Shown piece after piece: positions 10,053 to 63,326 of a DNA stretch of 64,000 nt. Where the stretch lies: positions 2,318,881 through 2,382,880 of the forward strand of contig NZ_LR701479.1 of NCBI RefSeq assembly GCF_902498745.1, read 5' to 3'. How positions within the stretch are numbered: the first letter of the stretch is position 1; the number at the start of each line of letters is the position of its first letter. The notes below the pieces were generated by a model. The model saw nothing but the letters and a program-made list of their open reading frames with translations. It was not told the origin of the DNA and ran no database searches. This DNA comes from Erythrobacter sp. EC-HK427. GTDB taxonomy: Bacteria; Pseudomonadota; Alphaproteobacteria; Sphingomonadales; Sphingomonadaceae. A program made the position numbers and the translations under genes.

Positions 10053-11231
10053 ATGGCCTTTTCCGCCTCTTCGTCTGCGCCCAAGGGAGCTACGGGTGTT
10101 CTCGTTCTTGCTGACGGCACGATCATCTGGGGCAAGGGCTTCGGCGCGACCGGCTCGGCGGTGGGCGAGGTCTGCTTCAACACCGCGATGACGGGGTATC
10201 AGGAAGTGCTGACCGACCCCTCCTACGCCGCGCAGATCGTCACCTTCACCTTCCCGCATATCGGCAATGTCGGCACCAATGGCGAGGACGTCGAAAGCCT
10301 GGTGGAAGGCGCGGTGGGCTGCGTGGTGCGCGAGGAAGTGACGAAGCAGTCCAATTTCCGCAGTGAGACCGAGTTCACCGAATGGATGGCAAAGCACGGC
10401 AAGATCGGCCTCTCGGGCGTCGATACCCGCGCGCTGACCCGCCGCATCCGCCAGACGGGCGCGCCCAATGCGGTGATCGCGCATTCGCCGGAGGGCGTGT
10501 TCGACCTCGATGCGCTGCTCCAGCGGGCGCAGGAATGGCCGGGGCTTGAGGGGATGGACTTGGCCGTGCGGGTGACGCGGGAGGCACGCGAGGATTGGTC
10601 GGGCGGTTACTGGCGGCTGGGCCATGGTTACGGGCGCGCCGCGTGGGACGGTAAGCCCCACGTTGTGGCGATCGACTACGGCGCGAAGGACAATATTTTT
10701 CGCAATCTCGTAAAGGCGGGCGCGCGGGTGACGGTGGTTCCGGCGAAGACCTCGCTAGAAGACATCATGGCGCTCAAACCCGATGGCGTGTTCCTGTCGA
10801 ACGGCCCCGGCGATCCGGCGGCGACGGGGGAATATGCGGTGCCGGTGATCCGCGCGCTGCTGGAGGCGGACGTGCCGCTCTTCGGCATCTGCCTCGGCCA
10901 CCAGATGCTCGCGCTGGCGGCGGGCGCGAAGACGATGAAGATGCACCAGGGGCATAGAGGCGCGAACCATCCGGTGCAGCGTGTCGGCGAAAACTGGGGC
11001 GCGAGCGCGGGACTGGTCGAGATCACCAGCATGAACCACGGCTTCGCGGTGGATGCTGCGACCTTGCCCGAAGGCGTGGAGCAAACCCACGTGTCGCTGT
11101 TCGACGGCTCGAACTGCGGGATCGCGATTGCAGGGAAGAAGGCGTTCGGGGTGCAGTATCACCCGGAAGCGAGCCCGGGGCCGCAGGACAGTTTCTATCT
11201 GTTCGAAAGGTTTGTGGGGATGTTGGGATAG
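10053..11231 (+). CDS. carA: Carbamoyl phosphate synthase small subunit
   Basis: CarA is the glutaminase subunit that supplies ammonia to CarB for carbamoyl phosphate, the precursor of arginine and pyrimidines. The 392-residue protein has the N-terminal CPSase domain (GFGATGSAVGEVCFNTAMTG) and a class I glutamine amidotransferase domain with the nucleophile in FGICLGHQMLALAAG and the catalytic His/Glu in QYHPEASPGP. The ATG at 10053 is preceded by GGGAGCCACC. The spacer 9904-10052 contains TTGACG at about 9976 but no convincing -10 box. CarB lies 2.1 kb downstream, separated by accessory sequence. Confidence 0.97.
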   Translation: MAFSASSSAPKGATGVLVLADGTIIWGKGFGATGSAVGEVCFNTAMTGYQEVLTDPSYAAQIVTFTFPHIGNVGTNGEDVESLVEGAVGCVVREEVTKQSNFRSETEFTEWMAKHGKIGLSGVDTRALTRRIRQTGAPNAVIAHSPEGVFDLDALLQRAQEWPGLEGMDLAVRVTREAREDWSGGYWRLGHGYGRAAWDGKPHVVAIDYGAKDNIFRNLVKAGARVTVVPAKTSLEDIMALKPDGVFLSNGPGDPAATGEYAVPVIRALLEADVPLFGICLGHQMLALAAGAKTMKMHQGHRGANHPVQRVGENWGASAGLVEITSMNHGFAVDAATLPEGVEQTHVSLFDGSNCGIAIAGKKAFGVQYHPEASPGPQDSFYLFERFVGMLG

Positions 11232-11234
11232 CCT

Positions 11235-11663
11235 ATGGCGAATTGGCGTAAAATCGCTGGAGTGTCAGGCTGTGTAGTACTGCTCGTCGGCTTTTTGATT
11301 CTAAGTCCGGGACTTCTTTTTGGAGCAATGCTTATCGCGGCATCAGAGCGGACAATTTATGAGCGAGTTGAGTCCCCAGATGGCTCGCGTGAAGCCAGAG
11401 TTCAATTTGACGATGCTGGCGCAGTTAGCGGATACCACCGCGTCGTCTTCGTCAAAAGTTCTTGGAACCCAAGCGATACACCAAGACTGAGTTGTCGAGC
11501 CTTTTGGGGTCATGGCCAAGCCGACATAACCCTCCGCTGGGATGACGACACGACCCTGGTCATCGAGCATCACGTAGCCCCTCAAAACGTCCGTGATGTA
11601 GCTGAAAATTGCGGACCGGTCCGAATTGTCTCGATACCTACAACTCCTTTTGAGAATTTCTAA
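11235..11663 (+). CDS. Hypothetical single-pass membrane protein (142 aa)
   Basis: No family recognised with confidence. Residues 7-37 form a hydrophobic anchor (VSGCVVLLVGFLILSPGLLF), followed by an extracytoplasmic domain with the pattern ESPDGSREARVQF, seen in several small lipoprotein or DUF5412-like proteins. Base composition is lower in GC than carA and codon use differs, which suggests acquisition. It begins 3 bp after carA, and its TAA overlaps the ATG of the next gene (TAATG), so it belongs to the carA operon. Confidence 0.6.
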   Translation: MANWRKIAGVSGCVVLLVGFLILSPGLLFGAMLIAASERTIYERVESPDGSREARVQFDDAGAVSGYHRVVFVKSSWNPSDTPRLSCRAFWGHGQADITLRWDDDTTLVIEHHVAPQNVRDVAENCGPVRIVSIPTTPFENF

Positions 11664-11714
11664 TGCCTGCCCGACTCGCTATCTCCTCCATCTTCGCCAG
11701 CGGCGCGACCCGCT

Positions 11715-11825
11715 CCCTTCCCATTGGGGAAGGGTTGGGGATGGGGGTTCGACGGTGAAAGGGCAGGGCTACCTTTCGGGCGTTGTACACCCATCCCCCA
11801 ACCCCTTCCCTCAAGGGAAGGGGGG
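11715..11825. repeat. REPIN-like inverted palindrome pair
   Basis: CCCTTCCCATTGGGGAAGGG (11715-11734) is followed by the tail TTGGGGATGGGGGTTC. After about 40 bases comes the inverted tail CCCATCCCCCAACC and a second palindrome CCTTCCCTCAAGGGAAGG ending near 11825. This is the arrangement of a REPIN: two REP palindromes in inverted orientation around a short spacer. It lies immediately downstream of the DUF559 stop codon. Confidence 0.8.
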
Positions 11826-11829
11826 CTTT

Positions 11830-12183
11830 TCAGCACTCATTTCTCGCCAGAGCAATCTCCTCCGCAATCACGTGCAGCACGCCGTCGATATTGCCGAGGA
11901 CTTCGTTGTTCCAGAACCGGATCACCTTGTAGCCATGCGCTTCGATCACCCGCGTCCGGCCCGCGTCCGTGCCACTCTCCGCGTGCTGCCCGCCGTCGAG
12001 CTCGATGGCGAGGCGCAGTTTTCGGCAGGCGAAGTCGGCGATGAAGTCTCCGATCCGGTGCTGGCGAGTGAAGGTCGCGTCACAGAATTGGCTGGCGCGC
12101 AGGTGCTGCCAGAGGCGCGTCTCCGCTTCGGTGGGATTGTTGCGCATTTCGCGCGCGAGTTGGGTCAAACGCTTTTTGGCCAC
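11830..12183 (-). CDS. DUF559 domain protein (endonuclease-like fold)
   Basis: A 117-residue protein of the DUF559 family, related by predicted fold to Vsr/PD-(D/E)XK-like nucleases. The motifs are clear: MRNNPTEAETRLWQHLR, then IGDFIADFACRKLRLAIELDGGQH with the likely catalytic Asp/Glu residues, then GYKVIRFWNNEVLGNIDGVL. No function is established for the family. I chose the GTG at 12183 because upstream codons are repeat-derived (a TTG at 12213 would add GKGWDGGST-like repeat sequence); ATG at 12147 is an alternative. Palindromic repeats lie on both sides. Confidence 0.85.
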   Translation of the reverse strand: MAKKRLTQLAREMRNNPTEAETRLWQHLRASQFCDATFTRQHRIGDFIADFACRKLRLAIELDGGQHAESGTDAGRTRVIEAHGYKVIRFWNNEVLGNIDGVLHVIAEEIALARNEC

Positions 12184-12187
12184 CGTG

Positions 12188-12286
12188 GAACCCCCATCCC
12201 AACCCTTCCCCAAGGGGAAGGGCTATCAGCTTCGTCAAACTCTTGCACCACCAAATTCGCCTCCCCGTGGGGAGGGGTTAGGGGTG
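12188..12286. repeat. Palindrome pair at the 5' side of the DUF559 gene
   Basis: An inverted tail GAACCCCCATCCCAACC leads into the palindrome CTTCCCCAAGGGGAAG near 12222; after about 40 bases a second palindrome CCTCCCCGTGGGGAGG (12260-12275) leads into the tail GGTTAGGGGTG. The second tail ends just before the interrupted signal-peptide sequence resumes. Confidence 0.75.
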
Positions 12287-12896
12287 CGTGTGCGGCGCTA
12301 GCTAGCCTCGCGCTTCTCGCAGCCATGCCTGCCGCCGCCCAAGACATAACCCCCGTCTCCGTCCAACTTATGGAAGGCGTCGCTTTCATCGGCGAGGGCG
12401 GGGTTGAGCTTCAATCGGGGGTGGACGATACGGCCGTCGCCAGCTTCTGGCGGCCGCTGCAATATAACCATCAGGGCGAAGTGCTCGCGGGCCGCATGGA
12501 GTGCCGCGCGGCGGCCAAGCGCGAGCCCTATCGCGCCGCGCTCTACCAGCTTGAGCAGGTGCACGCGGCCAATCTTGCGCAGGAGCGGCTGCGTGGTTTC
12601 GAGGAGCTCGACACCCGCAGCGCGCCGGGCGATGTGGTCAGCCGGCTTGACGTGATGGGCCGCCGGACCTCGCCGCTGCGGTATCAGGTGCTCACCTATG
12701 TCGCCGTGCGCACCGGCAGCGATCTGGTGAGCATCCGCCAAAGCTGCACCTTCCTGCGCGATGGCCGCGTCTACCGGCAGGATTTTATGCGCTATGTGGA
12801 CCGCCACACCAGCTTCGTTATCGTCCTGCCGCCGCCCGCCAGCGCAGACCCGCTGACGGCACCCACTCTTGATAGCCTTGTGGACATCGAAACCTA

Positions 12897-12935
12897 ATGC
12901 CCGAACGTAACGACATCTCCTCCATCGGCGCTGGC
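12897..12935 (+). pseudogene. Displaced copy of the carB 5' end
   Basis: The ATG overlapping the secreted-gene stop (TAATG) encodes MPERNDISSIGAG. The genuine carB start 477 bp downstream encodes [16 protein letters not shown]. The DNA GACATCTCCTCCATC is identical, and GGCGCTGGC follows in both, with 9 bp (CTCGTCATC) missing here between two ATC triplets. The frame then diverges and ends at a TGA near 12984. I infer that carB once began here. Confidence 0.55.
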
Positions 12936-12982
12936 ATGCAGGGCATTTGCCACCTGTTCGGGAAGTTCTCGGGGGTGCTGGG

Positions 12983-13390
12983 GTGAGTCTGCCGATAATG
13001 GATCAACGTCAGGCCGATCTGACGCTGCTGATGACGGTGGTCGGGCGGTCGAATGACCGCAATCCTTCCGTCAGGAGCCTGCACTGGATCAGAAACCATC
13101 TGGCTTCGGGGGGATATCTGACCCCGGAGCAGTTCCAGTCTGCGCTCGACACCCTGATCGGGCATGGGTTTATCGCGCTCGAAAAGCCAGAGAGCGGCGA
13201 TCGCGAATTGCTGCGCATCTGCGACTCGGGGCTGGCTTGGGTAAAATCGAATATCCGCGTGTATGTAGACGAGAAACCGATGTGGGAGCCGCTGCGCGAA
13301 GACTGGCAAATGACACCGCCTGCGCCTGAAGCAGGGCCCCTCCACACCACGACTGACAATGAAGGCAGTACCGATGCCGAAAAGAACTGA
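12983..13390 (+). CDS. Hypothetical protein overlapping the carB start
   Basis: A 135-residue protein from the GTG at 12983 (or about 130 from the ATG at 12998). No family recognised. Residues 30-80, with [20 protein letters not shown] followed by [14 protein letters not shown], have the helix-rich, strand-turn pattern of a small winged-helix domain, but this is a guess. The C-terminus is low-complexity and acidic. Its last 17 bases overlap the start of carB, so the two are coupled. It lies between the displaced and the genuine carB starts, which suggests that it was inserted there. Confidence 0.6.
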
Positions 13391-16300
13391 CATCTCCTCC
13401 ATCCTCGTCATCGGCGCTGGCCCGATTATCATCGGCCAGGCGTGCGAGTTCGATTACTCGGGCACGCAGGCGATCAAGGCGCTGAAGGAGGACGGGTATC
13501 GCGTCATCCTCGTGAACAGCAATCCCGCCACGATCATGACCGATCAGGACATGGCGGACGCCACCTATATTGAGCCGATTACGCCCGATATCGTCGCCAA
13601 GATCATCGCCAAGGAACGGCCCGATGCGCTGCTGCCGACGATGGGCGGGCAGACCGCATTGAATTGCGCGCTGGCGCTGGATGCGGATGGCACGTTGGCA
13701 AAATACGGGGTCGAGATGATCGGCGCGAAGGCCGATGTGATCGACAAGGCGGAAAACCGGATGCGCTTTCGCGATGCAATGGACGCGATCGGGCTGGAAA
13801 GCGCGCGCAGCGGCACCGCGCATACGCTGGAGGAGGCCTATGCCATCCTCGAACGCACCGGCCTGCCCAGCATTATCCGCCCCAGCTTCACCATGGGCGG
13901 GACGGGCGGGGGCATCGCCTACAACCGGCAGGAATTCGAGCGGATCGTGCGCAGCGGGCTCGATGCCAGCCCCACCACCGAAGTGCTGATCGAGGAATCG
14001 CTGCTCGGCTGGAAAGAATACGAGATGGAAGTTGTCCGCGACCGGAACGACAACTGCATCATCATCTGCTCCATCGAAAATGTCGATCCGATGGGCGTGC
14101 ATACGGGGGATTCGATCACCGTCGCTCCCGCGCTGACGCTGACCGATAAGGAATACCAGATCATGCGCACCGCCAGCATCAATGTGCTGCGCGAAATCGG
14201 TGTGGAAACAGGCGGATCGAACGTGCAGTTCGCAGTCAATCCGAAGGATGGCCGCCTGATCGTGATCGAGATGAACCCGCGTGTCTCGCGCTCATCCGCG
14301 CTTGCATCCAAGGCCACCGGCTTCCCAATCGCGCGCGTCGCGGCGAAGCTGGCGGTGGGATACACGCTGGACGAGATTACCAACGAAATCACCGGCGCGA
14401 CGCCTGCCAGCTTCGAACCGACGATTGATTACGTGGTCACCAAAGTCCCGCGCTTCGCCTTCGAGAAGTTCAAGGGCGCAGAGCCGCTGCTTTCCACTGC
14501 GATGAAATCGGTCGGTGAAGTCATGGCGATTGGCCGCAACTTCAAGGAAAGCCTGCAAAAGGCGCTGCGCGGGCTGGAAACCGGGCTCGACGGGTTCAAC
14601 CGGATGCCTGCCCTGGAAGGGGCGGCTCGCGAGGCGATTACCGCCGCGCTCAGCCAGGCAACGCCCGACCGCTTGCTAAATGCCGGGCAAGCCTTCCGCG
14701 AAGGCTTCACCGTCGATGAAATCCACGCGATCACGCATTACGACAAGTGGTTCCTGCGGCATATCGAGGAGATTATCGCCGAGGAAAAGCGCATCGGCAC
14801 CGATGGCCTGCCCAACAGTGCAGACGAGCTGCGCCGCCTGAAAGCGATGGGCTTTTCCGATAAACGTCTCGCCACTTTGGCGGTGCGTTCGGTGGGTGTC
14901 GCTGGCGGTCTGGGGGAAACGCAGGCGAAGCGCAGCGGGCTGCTCCACGATGCCCTGCGCGCCATGGCGGGCGCTACCAGCGAGGCCGAGGTGCGCGAGC
15001 TGCGCGAGAAGCTCGGCGTGCTGCCCGTCTACAAGCGGATCGATAGCTGCGCGGCGGAATTCGAAGCAATCACGCCCTATATGTATTCGACCTACGAAGC
15101 CCCCAGCTTTGGGGTGGCCGAGAACGAGGCTGACCCGTCCGAGCGCGAGAAAATCGTCATTCTCGGCGGCGGGCCGAACCGGATCGGGCAGGGGATCGAG
15201 TTCGATTACTGCTGCGTCCACGCCTGCTTCGCGCTCTCCGAAGCGGGCTATGAAACGATCATGGTCAACTGCAATCCGGAAACGGTTTCGACCGATTATG
15301 ATACATCCGACCGCCTCTATTTCGAACCTTTGACCGCTGAGGATGTGCTCGAAATCCTGCGGGTTGAGCAGTCCAAGGGCACGCTCAAAGGCGTGATCGT
15401 GCAGTTTGGCGGGCAGACGCCGCTCAAGCTGGCGGGCGCGCTGGAGGCGGCGGGAATCCCAATCCTCGGCACCAGTCCGGATGCGATTGATCTTGCCGAA
15501 GACCGCGAGCGGTTCGCTAGGCTCGTCAACCAGCTGAAGCTGAAACAGCCCGAAAACGGCATTGCCTACAGCCATGAGGAGGCGCTCGCGGTGGCGCATC
15601 GCATCGGGTATCCGGTGCTGCTGCGCCCCAGCTACGTGCTCGGCGGGCGGGCGATGGAGATTGTCGACAGCGACGCGCAGCTGGAAAACTACATCAACAC
15701 CGCGGTGGAAGTCTCGGGTGAATCGCCGGTTTTGGTCGACCAGTATCTGCGCGATGCGATCGAATGCGATGTCGATGTGCTGTGCGACGGGCAAGACGTC
15801 GTGGTGGCGGGCGTGATGCAGCATATCGAGGAGGCGGGCGTCCATTCGGGCGACAGCGCCTGTTCACTACCGCCCTACAGCCTGCCCGACGCAATCGTTG
15901 ACGAGCTGGAGCGCCAGTCCGAAGCTCTGGCCCGTGCGCTCAAAGTGTGCGGGCTGATGAATGTGCAATTCGCCATCAAACAGGGCGAAGTGTATCTCAT
16001 CGAGGTCAACCCCCGCGCCAGCCGCACCGTGCCCTTCGTCGCCAAGGCCACCGGCTCGCAAATCGCCAAAATCGCCGCGCGGGTGATGGCGGGGGAGAAA
16101 CTGGCGGACTTGCCGCCTGTCAAACGCGATATCGACTATATCGCGGTGAAGGAGGCGGTGTTCCCCTTCGCCCGCTTCCCCGGCTCCGATCCCGTGCTCA
16201 CACCGGAAATGAAGTCAACCGGCGAAGTGATGGGGATCGACAAGGATTTCCCCACCGCCTTCACCAAGTCGCAAATCGCCGAAGGCACGCGCCTGCCAGA

Positions 16301-16703
16301 GAAGGGGTGTATGTTCGTCTCGGTCAAGGATGGCGACAAGGCGCAGATTGTCGAACCGGTGCGCAAGCTGATCGATTATGGCTTCACCGCCATCGCCACC
16401 GGCGGCACGCAGGCCTATCTGCGCGAACAGGGCTTGCCGGTGGAGCGGGTGAACAAGGTGGCCGAGGGGCGGCCGCATATCGTCGACAAGATCATCGATG
16501 GTGAGATCGCGCTGGTGTTCAACACCACAGAGGGCTGGCAGAGCCACAAGGACAGCCAATCCATCCGCGCCTCGGCGCTGGAAGCGCGGGTTCCCTACTA
16601 CACCACCGCTGCCGCTTGCGATGCTGTGGCAACCGCGATTGTCTCGGTTTCTGCGGCTGACCTTGCAGTCAAGAGCCTGCAGGACTATTATAGCGGGAAA
16701 TAG
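13374..16703 (+). CDS. carB: Carbamoyl phosphate synthase large subunit
   Basis: CarB makes carbamoyl phosphate from bicarbonate, ammonia and two ATP. The 1109-residue protein has the two homologous ATP-grasp halves (first begins [20 protein letters not shown]; second [20 protein letters not shown]), an oligomerisation segment between them, and a C-terminal MGS-like allosteric domain ([18 protein letters not shown]). The start MPKRTDISS at 13374 is set by homology and by the GGCAGTACC upstream; an in-frame start at 13359 is less likely. It is separated from carA by accessory genes. Confidence 0.97.
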
Positions 16704-62864: not shown

Positions 62865-63326
62865 TCATACCTCGCCGTCCTTCTCCCTCTCCCCTTGCGG
62901 GAGAGGGTCGGGGAGAGGGGTTTCGAGCGCAGCGAGAACCATCTGCGCTACCCCATCGGAATTGTTGAGAATTTCGTTGTTCCAGAACCGCAAGACCCGA
63001 AAGCCCTGGGATGTGAGCCAATGATCGCGCGCGGCGTCGGCATCATCTGAGTGCTGTGAACCATCGGCTTCGATAATCACGCGGGAACCGAAGCAAACTA
63101 AGTCGACGATGTAATCGCCAATTTGCTCTTGCCGTTTGAACTTGTGGCCGCCCAATCGCTTGCCGCGCAGCAGCGACCAGAGCTTGCGCTCTGCATCGGT
63201 GGGCTCGCGGCGCATATGTTTCGCCAAAGGCAGCAGGTCGCGCCTGCCCCCTCTCCTTCCCACCGCTGCGCGGCGGGCCCCTTCCTCTCCCGCAAGGGGA
63301 GAGGAGTTGGTTCGCGGCGCACTCAT
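62865..63326 (-). CDS. DUF559 domain protein (second copy)
   Basis: A 153-residue frame with a DUF559 core: MRREPTDAERKLWSLLRGK, FKRQEQIGDYIVDLVCFGS, RVIIEADGSQHSDDADAARD and GFRVLRFWNNEILNN. The first 35 and last 15 or so residues (NSSPLAGEEGARRA and PLPDPLPQGEREKDGEV) are translated palindromic repeat, so only the core is conserved. The start ATG at 63326 overlaps the thioesterase stop (ATGA); translation might start within the core instead. The core is about 45% identical by eye to the copy at 11830. Confidence 0.82.
   Translation of the reverse strand: MSAPRTNSSPLAGEEGARRAAVGRRGGRRDLLPLAKHMRREPTDAERKLWSLLRGKRLGGHKFKRQEQIGDYIVDLVCFGSRVIIEADGSQHSDDADAARDHWLTSQGFRVLRFWNNEILNNSDGVAQMVLAALETPLPDPLPQGEREKDGEV
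62883..63304. mobile_element. Palindrome-flanked DUF559 unit (second copy)
   Basis: Inverted repeats bracket the DUF559 core. Left, CTCTCCCCTTGCGGGAGAG (about 62887-62905) with tail GGTCGGGGAGAGGGG leading inward; right, CTCTCCCGCAAGGGGAGAG (about 63285-63303) preceded by a G/C-rich tail. The palindromes are outermost and the tails point to the gene, as expected for terminal inverted repeats. It fills the space between lpdA and the thioesterase gene. Movement as a unit is inference. Confidence 0.55.

What the first reader, a model, noticed from the sequence alone, without database searches (positions are those of the whole stretch)
11663..12897. A palindrome-flanked DUF559 unit interrupts a signal-peptide coding sequence, and removal restores a perfect frame
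The frame from ATG 11663 (coupled to the previous gene by TAATG) encodes MPARLAISSIFA, then enters palindromic repeat. From 12292 the frame AALASLALLAAMPAAAQ continues to a stop at 12897. Joining 11663-11698 to 12292-12897 gives 642 bases, in frame, with an ideal signal peptide. Between them lie two REPIN-like palindrome pairs and a DUF559 nuclease-like gene. This is direct evidence that the 0.6-kb block inserted into a working gene, although no transposase is present.
Basis: partly seen in the sequence, partly recalled or inferred. Interest (0 to 1): 0.8.

Follow-up and report, generated by a model that had tools for sequence, protein, structure and literature searches.

The report
DUF559-palindrome unit in carAB operon
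The block is not an insertion into a signal peptide: it is a small nuclease gene flanked by its own type of DNA palindrome, sitting in a gap between two metabolic genes where foreign genes pile up and leave worn copies of the next gene's start; the same nuclease-palindrome pairing recurs in many bacteria, so this nuclease may be what spreads the palindromes.

Summary
Coordinates, palindromes, minus-strand DUF559 gene and in-frame join are real. The join is a coincidence: 11663-11716 is a worn copy of the carB start. It and 12897 are the two best non-self matches to carB nt 1-54 in the window. The carA-carB gap is a gene-accretion site (0-2142 bp in 53 genomes). The block is a REP-DUF559-REP unit. 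Its palindrome type occurs in 7/7 genus genomes with this DUF559 and 2/33 without; a dispersed 95-nt doublet has empty sites in relatives; this genome has no Y1/RAYT transposase; across non-orthologous loci DUF559 identity predicts palindrome type (0/500 permutations); 48/56 testable DUF559 genes from several phyla lie between inverted repeats. Most likely DUF559, with a Vsr/I-Bth0305I fold, is the RAYT-like partner of these palindromes (inferred). X stays under purifying selection, perhaps read through an antisense ORF.

The parts
10053..11231 (+). carA
   Evidence: ORF; junctions extracted with it
11235..11663 (+). gene W, 142 aa, no family found above cut-off
   Evidence: in no other of the 53 junctions
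11663..11716 (+). carB 5' scar 1 (carB nt 1-54); it opens a short ORF that ends at TGA 11756-11758
   Evidence: 34/54 identity, rank 1 among non-self positions
11715..11822 (.). left palindrome pair (two REPs in inverted orientation)
11830..12183 (-). DUF559 gene, probable start GTG 12183 (117 aa; start read from sequence; longer ORF to 12213)
   Evidence: Pfam PF04480 E 1.4e-36; fold
12191..12222 (.). right REP, inverted copy of 11715-11746 (88% complementary)
12258..12290 (.). second right REP, abutting X
11755..12897 (+). open frame from GTG 11755 antisense to DUF559 and in frame with X (380 aa); its GTG overlaps the stop of the scar ORF; translation not shown
   Evidence: weak null
12292..12897 (+). 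gene X, 5'-truncated, no Pfam family
   Evidence: homologues in 9 other of 99 genomes; dN/dS 0.20 against G008
12897..12986 (+). scar 2: carB start joined to a carA 3'-end relic (12938-12986)
12983..13390 (+). gene Y
   Evidence: in no other of the 53 junctions
13374..16703 (+). carB
   Evidence: listed from an upstream ATG at 13359; start by relatives

Best explanation
The block is a REP-DUF559-REP unit: a small Vsr-like nuclease gene between copies of its own palindrome type. It sits in the carA-carB gap, where genes accumulate and arrivals leave worn copies of the carB start. ATG 11663 is such a scar (shown). X lost its start at the border with the unit (shown). Accretion probably runs by homology-facilitated illegitimate recombination: incoming DNA pairs with carB on one side and joins without homology on the other (inferred). 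The unit probably works like a RAYT-REPIN pair with a different enzyme: DUF559 cuts or nicks the palindrome hairpins and so spreads inverted doublets through the genome (association and presence/absence of doublets shown; catalysis inferred). X is probably still translated, through an ORF antisense to DUF559 within a chain of overlapping ORFs from carA to carB (inferred, weakly supported).
For: carB scars. Scar-X and scar-unit apart in relatives. Palindrome type with gene 7/7 versus 2/33 without; outside the unit 6/7 versus 2/33, p 4.8e-5. No Y1 transposase in this genome and in 37 of 40 of the genus. DUF559 identity tracks palindrome type at non-orthologous places. Empty sites for a doublet and for the window's second unit. 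Inverted repeats around DUF559 in 48/56 loci of several phyla. Fold like I-Bth0305I (Z 11.7) and Vsr (Z 9.2). X dN/dS 0.20-0.30. Antisense frame stop-free in 8/8 carAB units, 9/47 elsewhere.
Against: No catalysis tested. None of the association tests corrects for phylogeny. The second clade's palindrome is less strict: 15/17 with the gene, 10/23 without. G022 has the unit but no copy of the motif outside it; G023 and G039 have the motif without the gene. G009, a unit bearer, has a Y1 match. 8/56 loci show no excess inverted repeat. The ORF chain is as good in 28-79% of synonymous resamplings. Scars of G008, G022, G045, G147 and G020/G021/G037 were not significant in the shuffle test.
Confidence: 0.6

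Rival explanations
1. One reading: the unit inserted into X inside its signal peptide, and 11663-11698 is the N-terminus of X.
For: Frame fits; X is truncated at the unit; G025 has X whole, starting at a carA-coupled ATG; the left piece in G020/G021/G037 is unassigned.
Against: Left piece is carB; scar and X separate in G008 and G019; scar-unit without X in G009 and G035.
Confidence: 0.08
2. DUF559 is ordinary cargo; palindromes land beside it passively or serve as terminators, and something else moves them.
For: DUF559 loci are often shared by descent (context groups); the C. crescentus DUF559 protein VsrA was studied as a Vsr-like endonuclease (PMC12907096, passages); some genomes have palindromes without the gene.
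Against: Palindrome type follows DUF559 clade at unrelated places and per genome; inverted flanks in 48/56 loci of several phyla.
Confidence: 0.25
3. DUF559 is a free-standing homing endonuclease whose cuts drive exchange of the whole carA-carB gap.
For: Closest functional structure is the homing endonuclease I-Bth0305I; unit-bearing species are scattered on a carA-based tree.
Against: The gap is equally variable in the 44 of 53 genomes without DUF559 there; other DUF559 genes sit at other loci.
Confidence: 0.15
4. The carB scars come from local tandem duplication or slippage at carB, with genes landing later, not from one-sided recombination with foreign carAB DNA.
For: Several scars begin at carB nt 1-3 in register.
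Against: Scar 2 joins a carB start to a carA end, which needs a second carA-gene-carB molecule or a longer duplication.
Confidence: 0.3

Closest known systems
REPINs and their RAYT transposases (PMC3116915; passages seen)
   Same: Palindromes, dispersed inverted doublets, a gene flanked by its own palindrome type
   Different: Enzyme is DUF559 (PD-(D/E)XK/Vsr-like fold), not a Y1/HUH transposase, which this genome lacks
[quoted passage not shown] TIRtrons (PMC3733652; passages seen)
   Same: REP families without a known mover; gene between inverted repeats
   Different: TIRtrons carry tyrosine transposases; tags were not tested here
Vsr / I-Bth0305I endonucleases; Caulobacter VsrA with a DUF559 domain (PMC12907096; passages seen)
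   Same: Fold (Z 9.2 and 11.7); DUF559 domain
   Different: No palindrome link in the passages seen (the word stem 'palindrom' occurs 0 times in its main text)
Gene arrays attributed to homology-facilitated illegitimate recombination, e.g. V. cholerae T6SS immunity arrays (PMC5361080; passages seen)
   Same: Successive additions next to a conserved anchor leave remnants
   Different: Here unrelated small genes stack inside a two-gene biosynthetic operon

Membership tests
DUF559 (PF04480) | Score over the curated cut-off | tested here: met
   125.1 bits, cut-off 20.6
Vsr mismatch endonuclease (TIGR00632) | NCBIfam cut-off | tested here: not met
   No match for the window protein at E 0.01; two relatives reach 17-19 bits, cut-off 97.85
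Vsr mismatch endonuclease (TIGR00632) | Vsr-like fold | tested here: met
   1cw0 Z 9.2, rmsd 2.7, 97 residues; a shared fold shows no function
RAYT-REPIN system | RAYT (Y1 transposase) in the genome | tested here: not met
   No PF01797 match at E<=1
RAYT-REPIN system | Palindromes dispersed as inverted doublets | tested here: met
   Same 95-nt doublet at further places in G000, G009, G020, G021, G037; G010 second-clade motif: 20 +/- pairs among 56 matches, 0.13 neighbours expected
RAYT-REPIN system | Partner gene flanked by the same palindrome type | tested here: met
   Here with DUF559, not RAYT
GTAG- or CGTC-tagged REPs | Tetranucleotide tag at one end | not tested
   No systematic test was made
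Insertion sequence | Known transposase between terminal repeats | tested here: inconclusive
   Only Y1_Tnp was searched; the gene between the repeats is DUF559
Homing endonuclease | Cuts the unit-free target site | not testable with these tools
   Fold match only
Homology-facilitated illegitimate recombination | Homology on one side, non-homologous joint on the other | tested here: inconclusive
   Scars and the carB/carA joint fit; donor molecules not identified

The most novel reading that the evidence does not exclude
Stand-alone DUF559 proteins are a second, RAYT-independent class of REP-spreading enzyme, found in several bacterial phyla and each clade paired with its own palindrome; they could account for REP families that have had no known transposase. 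At carAB the unit is also read through in the antisense direction as part of a nearly gap-free translational relay.
Probability: 0.45. Interest if true: 0.88.

Novelty: new variant of a known kind. Interest (0 to 1): 0.72.

Why it matters
Some REP families are said to lack a dedicated transposase (PMC3733652). A clade-matched nuclease of a different fold is a concrete, testable candidate and would give a function to a domain still called 'unknown'. The carA-carB gap offers a readable record of gene accretion, with scars marking arrivals.

Tried and rejected
Rejected: 11663 as the N-terminus of X. Rejected: the block as a recently multiplied element; apart from its own place only pieces of its palindromes recur in the genome. 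Not resolved: whether unit-free G025 is nested among unit-bearing G020/G021/G037; carA, carB, concatenated and X trees disagree with mostly low support. Not resolved: origin of the left piece in that clade and in G022. The relay idea looked strong as gap lengths (0-3 nt in 7 of 9 unit junctions, 11 and 26 nt in G022 and G147), but in each of the 8 tested a chain as good is common under synonymous resampling (0.28-0.79). The antisense-frame result (0/840 stop codons versus 49/4935, p 0.0008; the other two frames p 0.60 and 0.12) is better, but the eight genes share ancestry. My first palindrome regex missed the palindromes of one DUF559 subfamily, which showed only on reading the flanks (its output cut in the middle, so not all 55 were seen). 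A carA 3'-end match at the shuffle floor also occurs in G179; not followed. In one search I used 56 of the 80 loci: 22 have short flanks, and L171 and L179 lie in genomes already used. A possible imperfect 10-bp repeat at the ends of the second unit was seen by eye only and is not claimed. Papers were seen as listings or passages, none whole. Searches behind 'no paper found': DUF559, REPIN/RAYT/DUF559, COG2852/PF04480/YcjD, palindromic repeat/endonuclease-like gene/Vsr-like, REP plus Erythrobacter (passages of its one hit, PMC12306157); the library lacks most subscription papers. A recalled report of a variable carA-carB spacer in Neisseria was looked for and not seen in the rows listed (15 of 55 and 10 of 180).

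Full report
WHAT IS THERE. The window lies in a 3.1-Mb genome of a genus that is probably Aurantiacibacter (relative G020 has the contig length of A. suaedae; inference).

THE LEFT PIECE IS CARB. Sliding carB nt 1-54 (genus consensus) over both strands of the window without gaps, the best non-self places are 11663 (34/54) and 12897 (33/54). Against 9489 start-codon positions in 53 loci, 40-nt identity ranks G019, G035, G131, G000 (twice) and G024 on top, level with one unrelated position in G010; G008 follows, then G147 tied with others. A gapped test with 200 dinucleotide shuffles on each of the 49 junctions of 100 nt or more reached its floor (p 0.005) for G000, G009, G019, G035, G131 and G238; G024 and G025 had p 0.015, the latter inside X and not at a carB start; G008, G022, G045, G147 and G020/G021/G037 were not significant there. 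By the start-anchored measure G008, G045 and G147 have p 0.0008-0.006 over 40 nt, while G009 (offset by two bases), G022, G025 and G020/G021/G037 do not stand out. The piece at 12897 runs on into a copy of the carA 3' end (12938-12986; score 58, shuffle maximum 34). So pieces at this gap are separated by carB scars, once joined to carA.

ORDER OF EVENTS. I extracted the gap from 36 of 40 genus genomes (carB was not found in 4) and from 17 other family genomes (171 of 179 had a carB match; only these 17 were used). Lengths run from 0 to 2142 bp; W and Y were found in no other junction. The DUF559 unit is present in 9 of 53: G000, G009, G020, G021, G022, G035, G037, G045, G147. G008 and G019 have scar then X with its own GTG and no unit; G238 also has scar then X. 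G009 and G035 have scar, unit, carB and no X. So scar-X and scar-unit exist apart, and X was not continuous with 11663-11698. In this genome X lost its first few codons at the border with the palindrome. In G020/G021/G037 the history is open.

IS X ALIVE? Over the compared codons X shows no frameshift, and pairwise dN/dS is 0.23-0.30 among G020/G021/G037 and 0.20 between G000 and G008. In G000, G020, G021 and G037 the nearest in-frame ATG, GTG or TTG lies 132 nt or more upstream of its first homologous residue; in G045 a TTG lies 15 nt upstream. The frame stays open through the antisense strand of DUF559. That codon-aligned antisense frame has no stop in 8/8 carAB units of this clade and is open in 9/47 other DUF559 loci: 0/840 versus 49/4935 codons, p 0.0008, while the two other antisense frames do not differ. 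A chain of overlapping ORFs reaches carB with gaps of 0-3 nt in 7 of 9 unit junctions, 11 and 26 nt in G022 and G147. In this genome it runs W, scar ORF, GTG 11755 to 12897, scar 2 ORF, Y. But synonymous resampling gives chains as good in 28-79% of cases per genome (8 genomes), and the genomes are related; I hold the relay as a hypothesis. More generally, 39 of 49 junctions of at least 150 nt have an ORF of 40 or more codons ending within 4 nt of the carB start.

THE UNIT. All 40 genus genomes have DUF559 matches. In the flanks that I could read (55 printed, output cut), DUF559 genes mostly lie beside or between palindromes that differ by clade, and several proteins end inside one; some flanks showed none. 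Quantified: over 54 loci, 1323 pairs not sharing a genomic context, DUF559 identity and flank similarity correlate (rho 0.51; 0/500 Mantel permutations); strong flank matches (score 50 or more) occur in 1% of pairs at 35-45% identity and 85% at 65-75%. The palindrome motif of the window's clade occurs in 7/7 genomes with the gene and 2/33 without (G023, G039); counting only copies outside the unit, 6/7 versus 2/33, p 4.8e-5; the backwards control pattern gave 0 in all 40. A second clade's motif is less strict: 15/17 with, 10/23 without (Fisher 0.007, Mann-Whitney 0.0004). Clades were assigned by reading the protein N-termini. None of these tests corrects for phylogeny. Unit-bearing species are scattered on a carA-based tree.

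MOBILITY. A 95-nt inverted doublet recurs at 80-94% identity in G000, G020, G021, G037, G009 and once in G032 (rows per genome were capped). At one site of G000 (1388243-1388337 of its contig) six relatives (G002, G010, G011, G012, G013, G015) have both flanks with -3 to 44 nt between them instead of 142-178 (counted from the rows). In G010, 40 of 56 second-clade matches form +/- doublets. This genome has no Y1 transposase; in the genus 3 of 40 have one, G009 among them. The second DUF559 unit of this window (about 62880-63318) is absent in G002, G006, G015, G018, G023, G024 and G039, where lpd and the next gene are 170-181 nt apart; of the other nine regions fetched, six had spacers of -1 to 62 nt, G011 and G038 300-402 nt, and G028 holds another DUF559.

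BEYOND THE GENUS. Of 56 loci with full flanks, 48 have upstream-downstream inverted similarity above all their control windows of equal geometry; the 48 include records titled Gamma- and Deltaproteobacteria, Nitrospira, Prevotella and Binatia.

ENZYME. The predicted fold (mean pLDDT 84.8) matches 3hrl (Z 15.4), I-Bth0305I (Z 11.7) and Vsr (Z 9.2); the profile matches 3hrl and 3r3p. Residues D53, E64, D66, H70, D76 and R79 are invariant in both alignments and fit a nuclease; their role is inferred.

VERDICT. What is new is the pairing of DUF559 clades with REP types, here in a genome without a Y1 transposase. I found no paper linking the two in the held library.

Noticed in passing
window 62880-63318 (-): A second palindrome-flanked DUF559 unit between lpd and a thioesterase-like gene, absent in seven relatives with a 170-181 nt spacer.
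   Followed up: partly
carA-carB gap in 53 genomes: Hypervariable: 0 to 2142 bp, mostly different small genes, usually ending on the carB start codon.
   Followed up: partly
G002, G015, G031, G004: Second-clade palindrome motif present (6-14 copies) without a matching DUF559 gene; perhaps relics after gene loss.
   Followed up: no
G021: 61 copies of the window clade's motif, far more than its near relatives G020 (7), G037 (13) and G025 (0): a likely recent expansion; this 4.4-Mb assembly also has two lpd-region matches, so contamination should be excluded.
   Followed up: no
G000 contig C2: 1014725-1015027 and 1015488-1015790: Two DUF559 genes of different subfamilies side by side.
   Followed up: no
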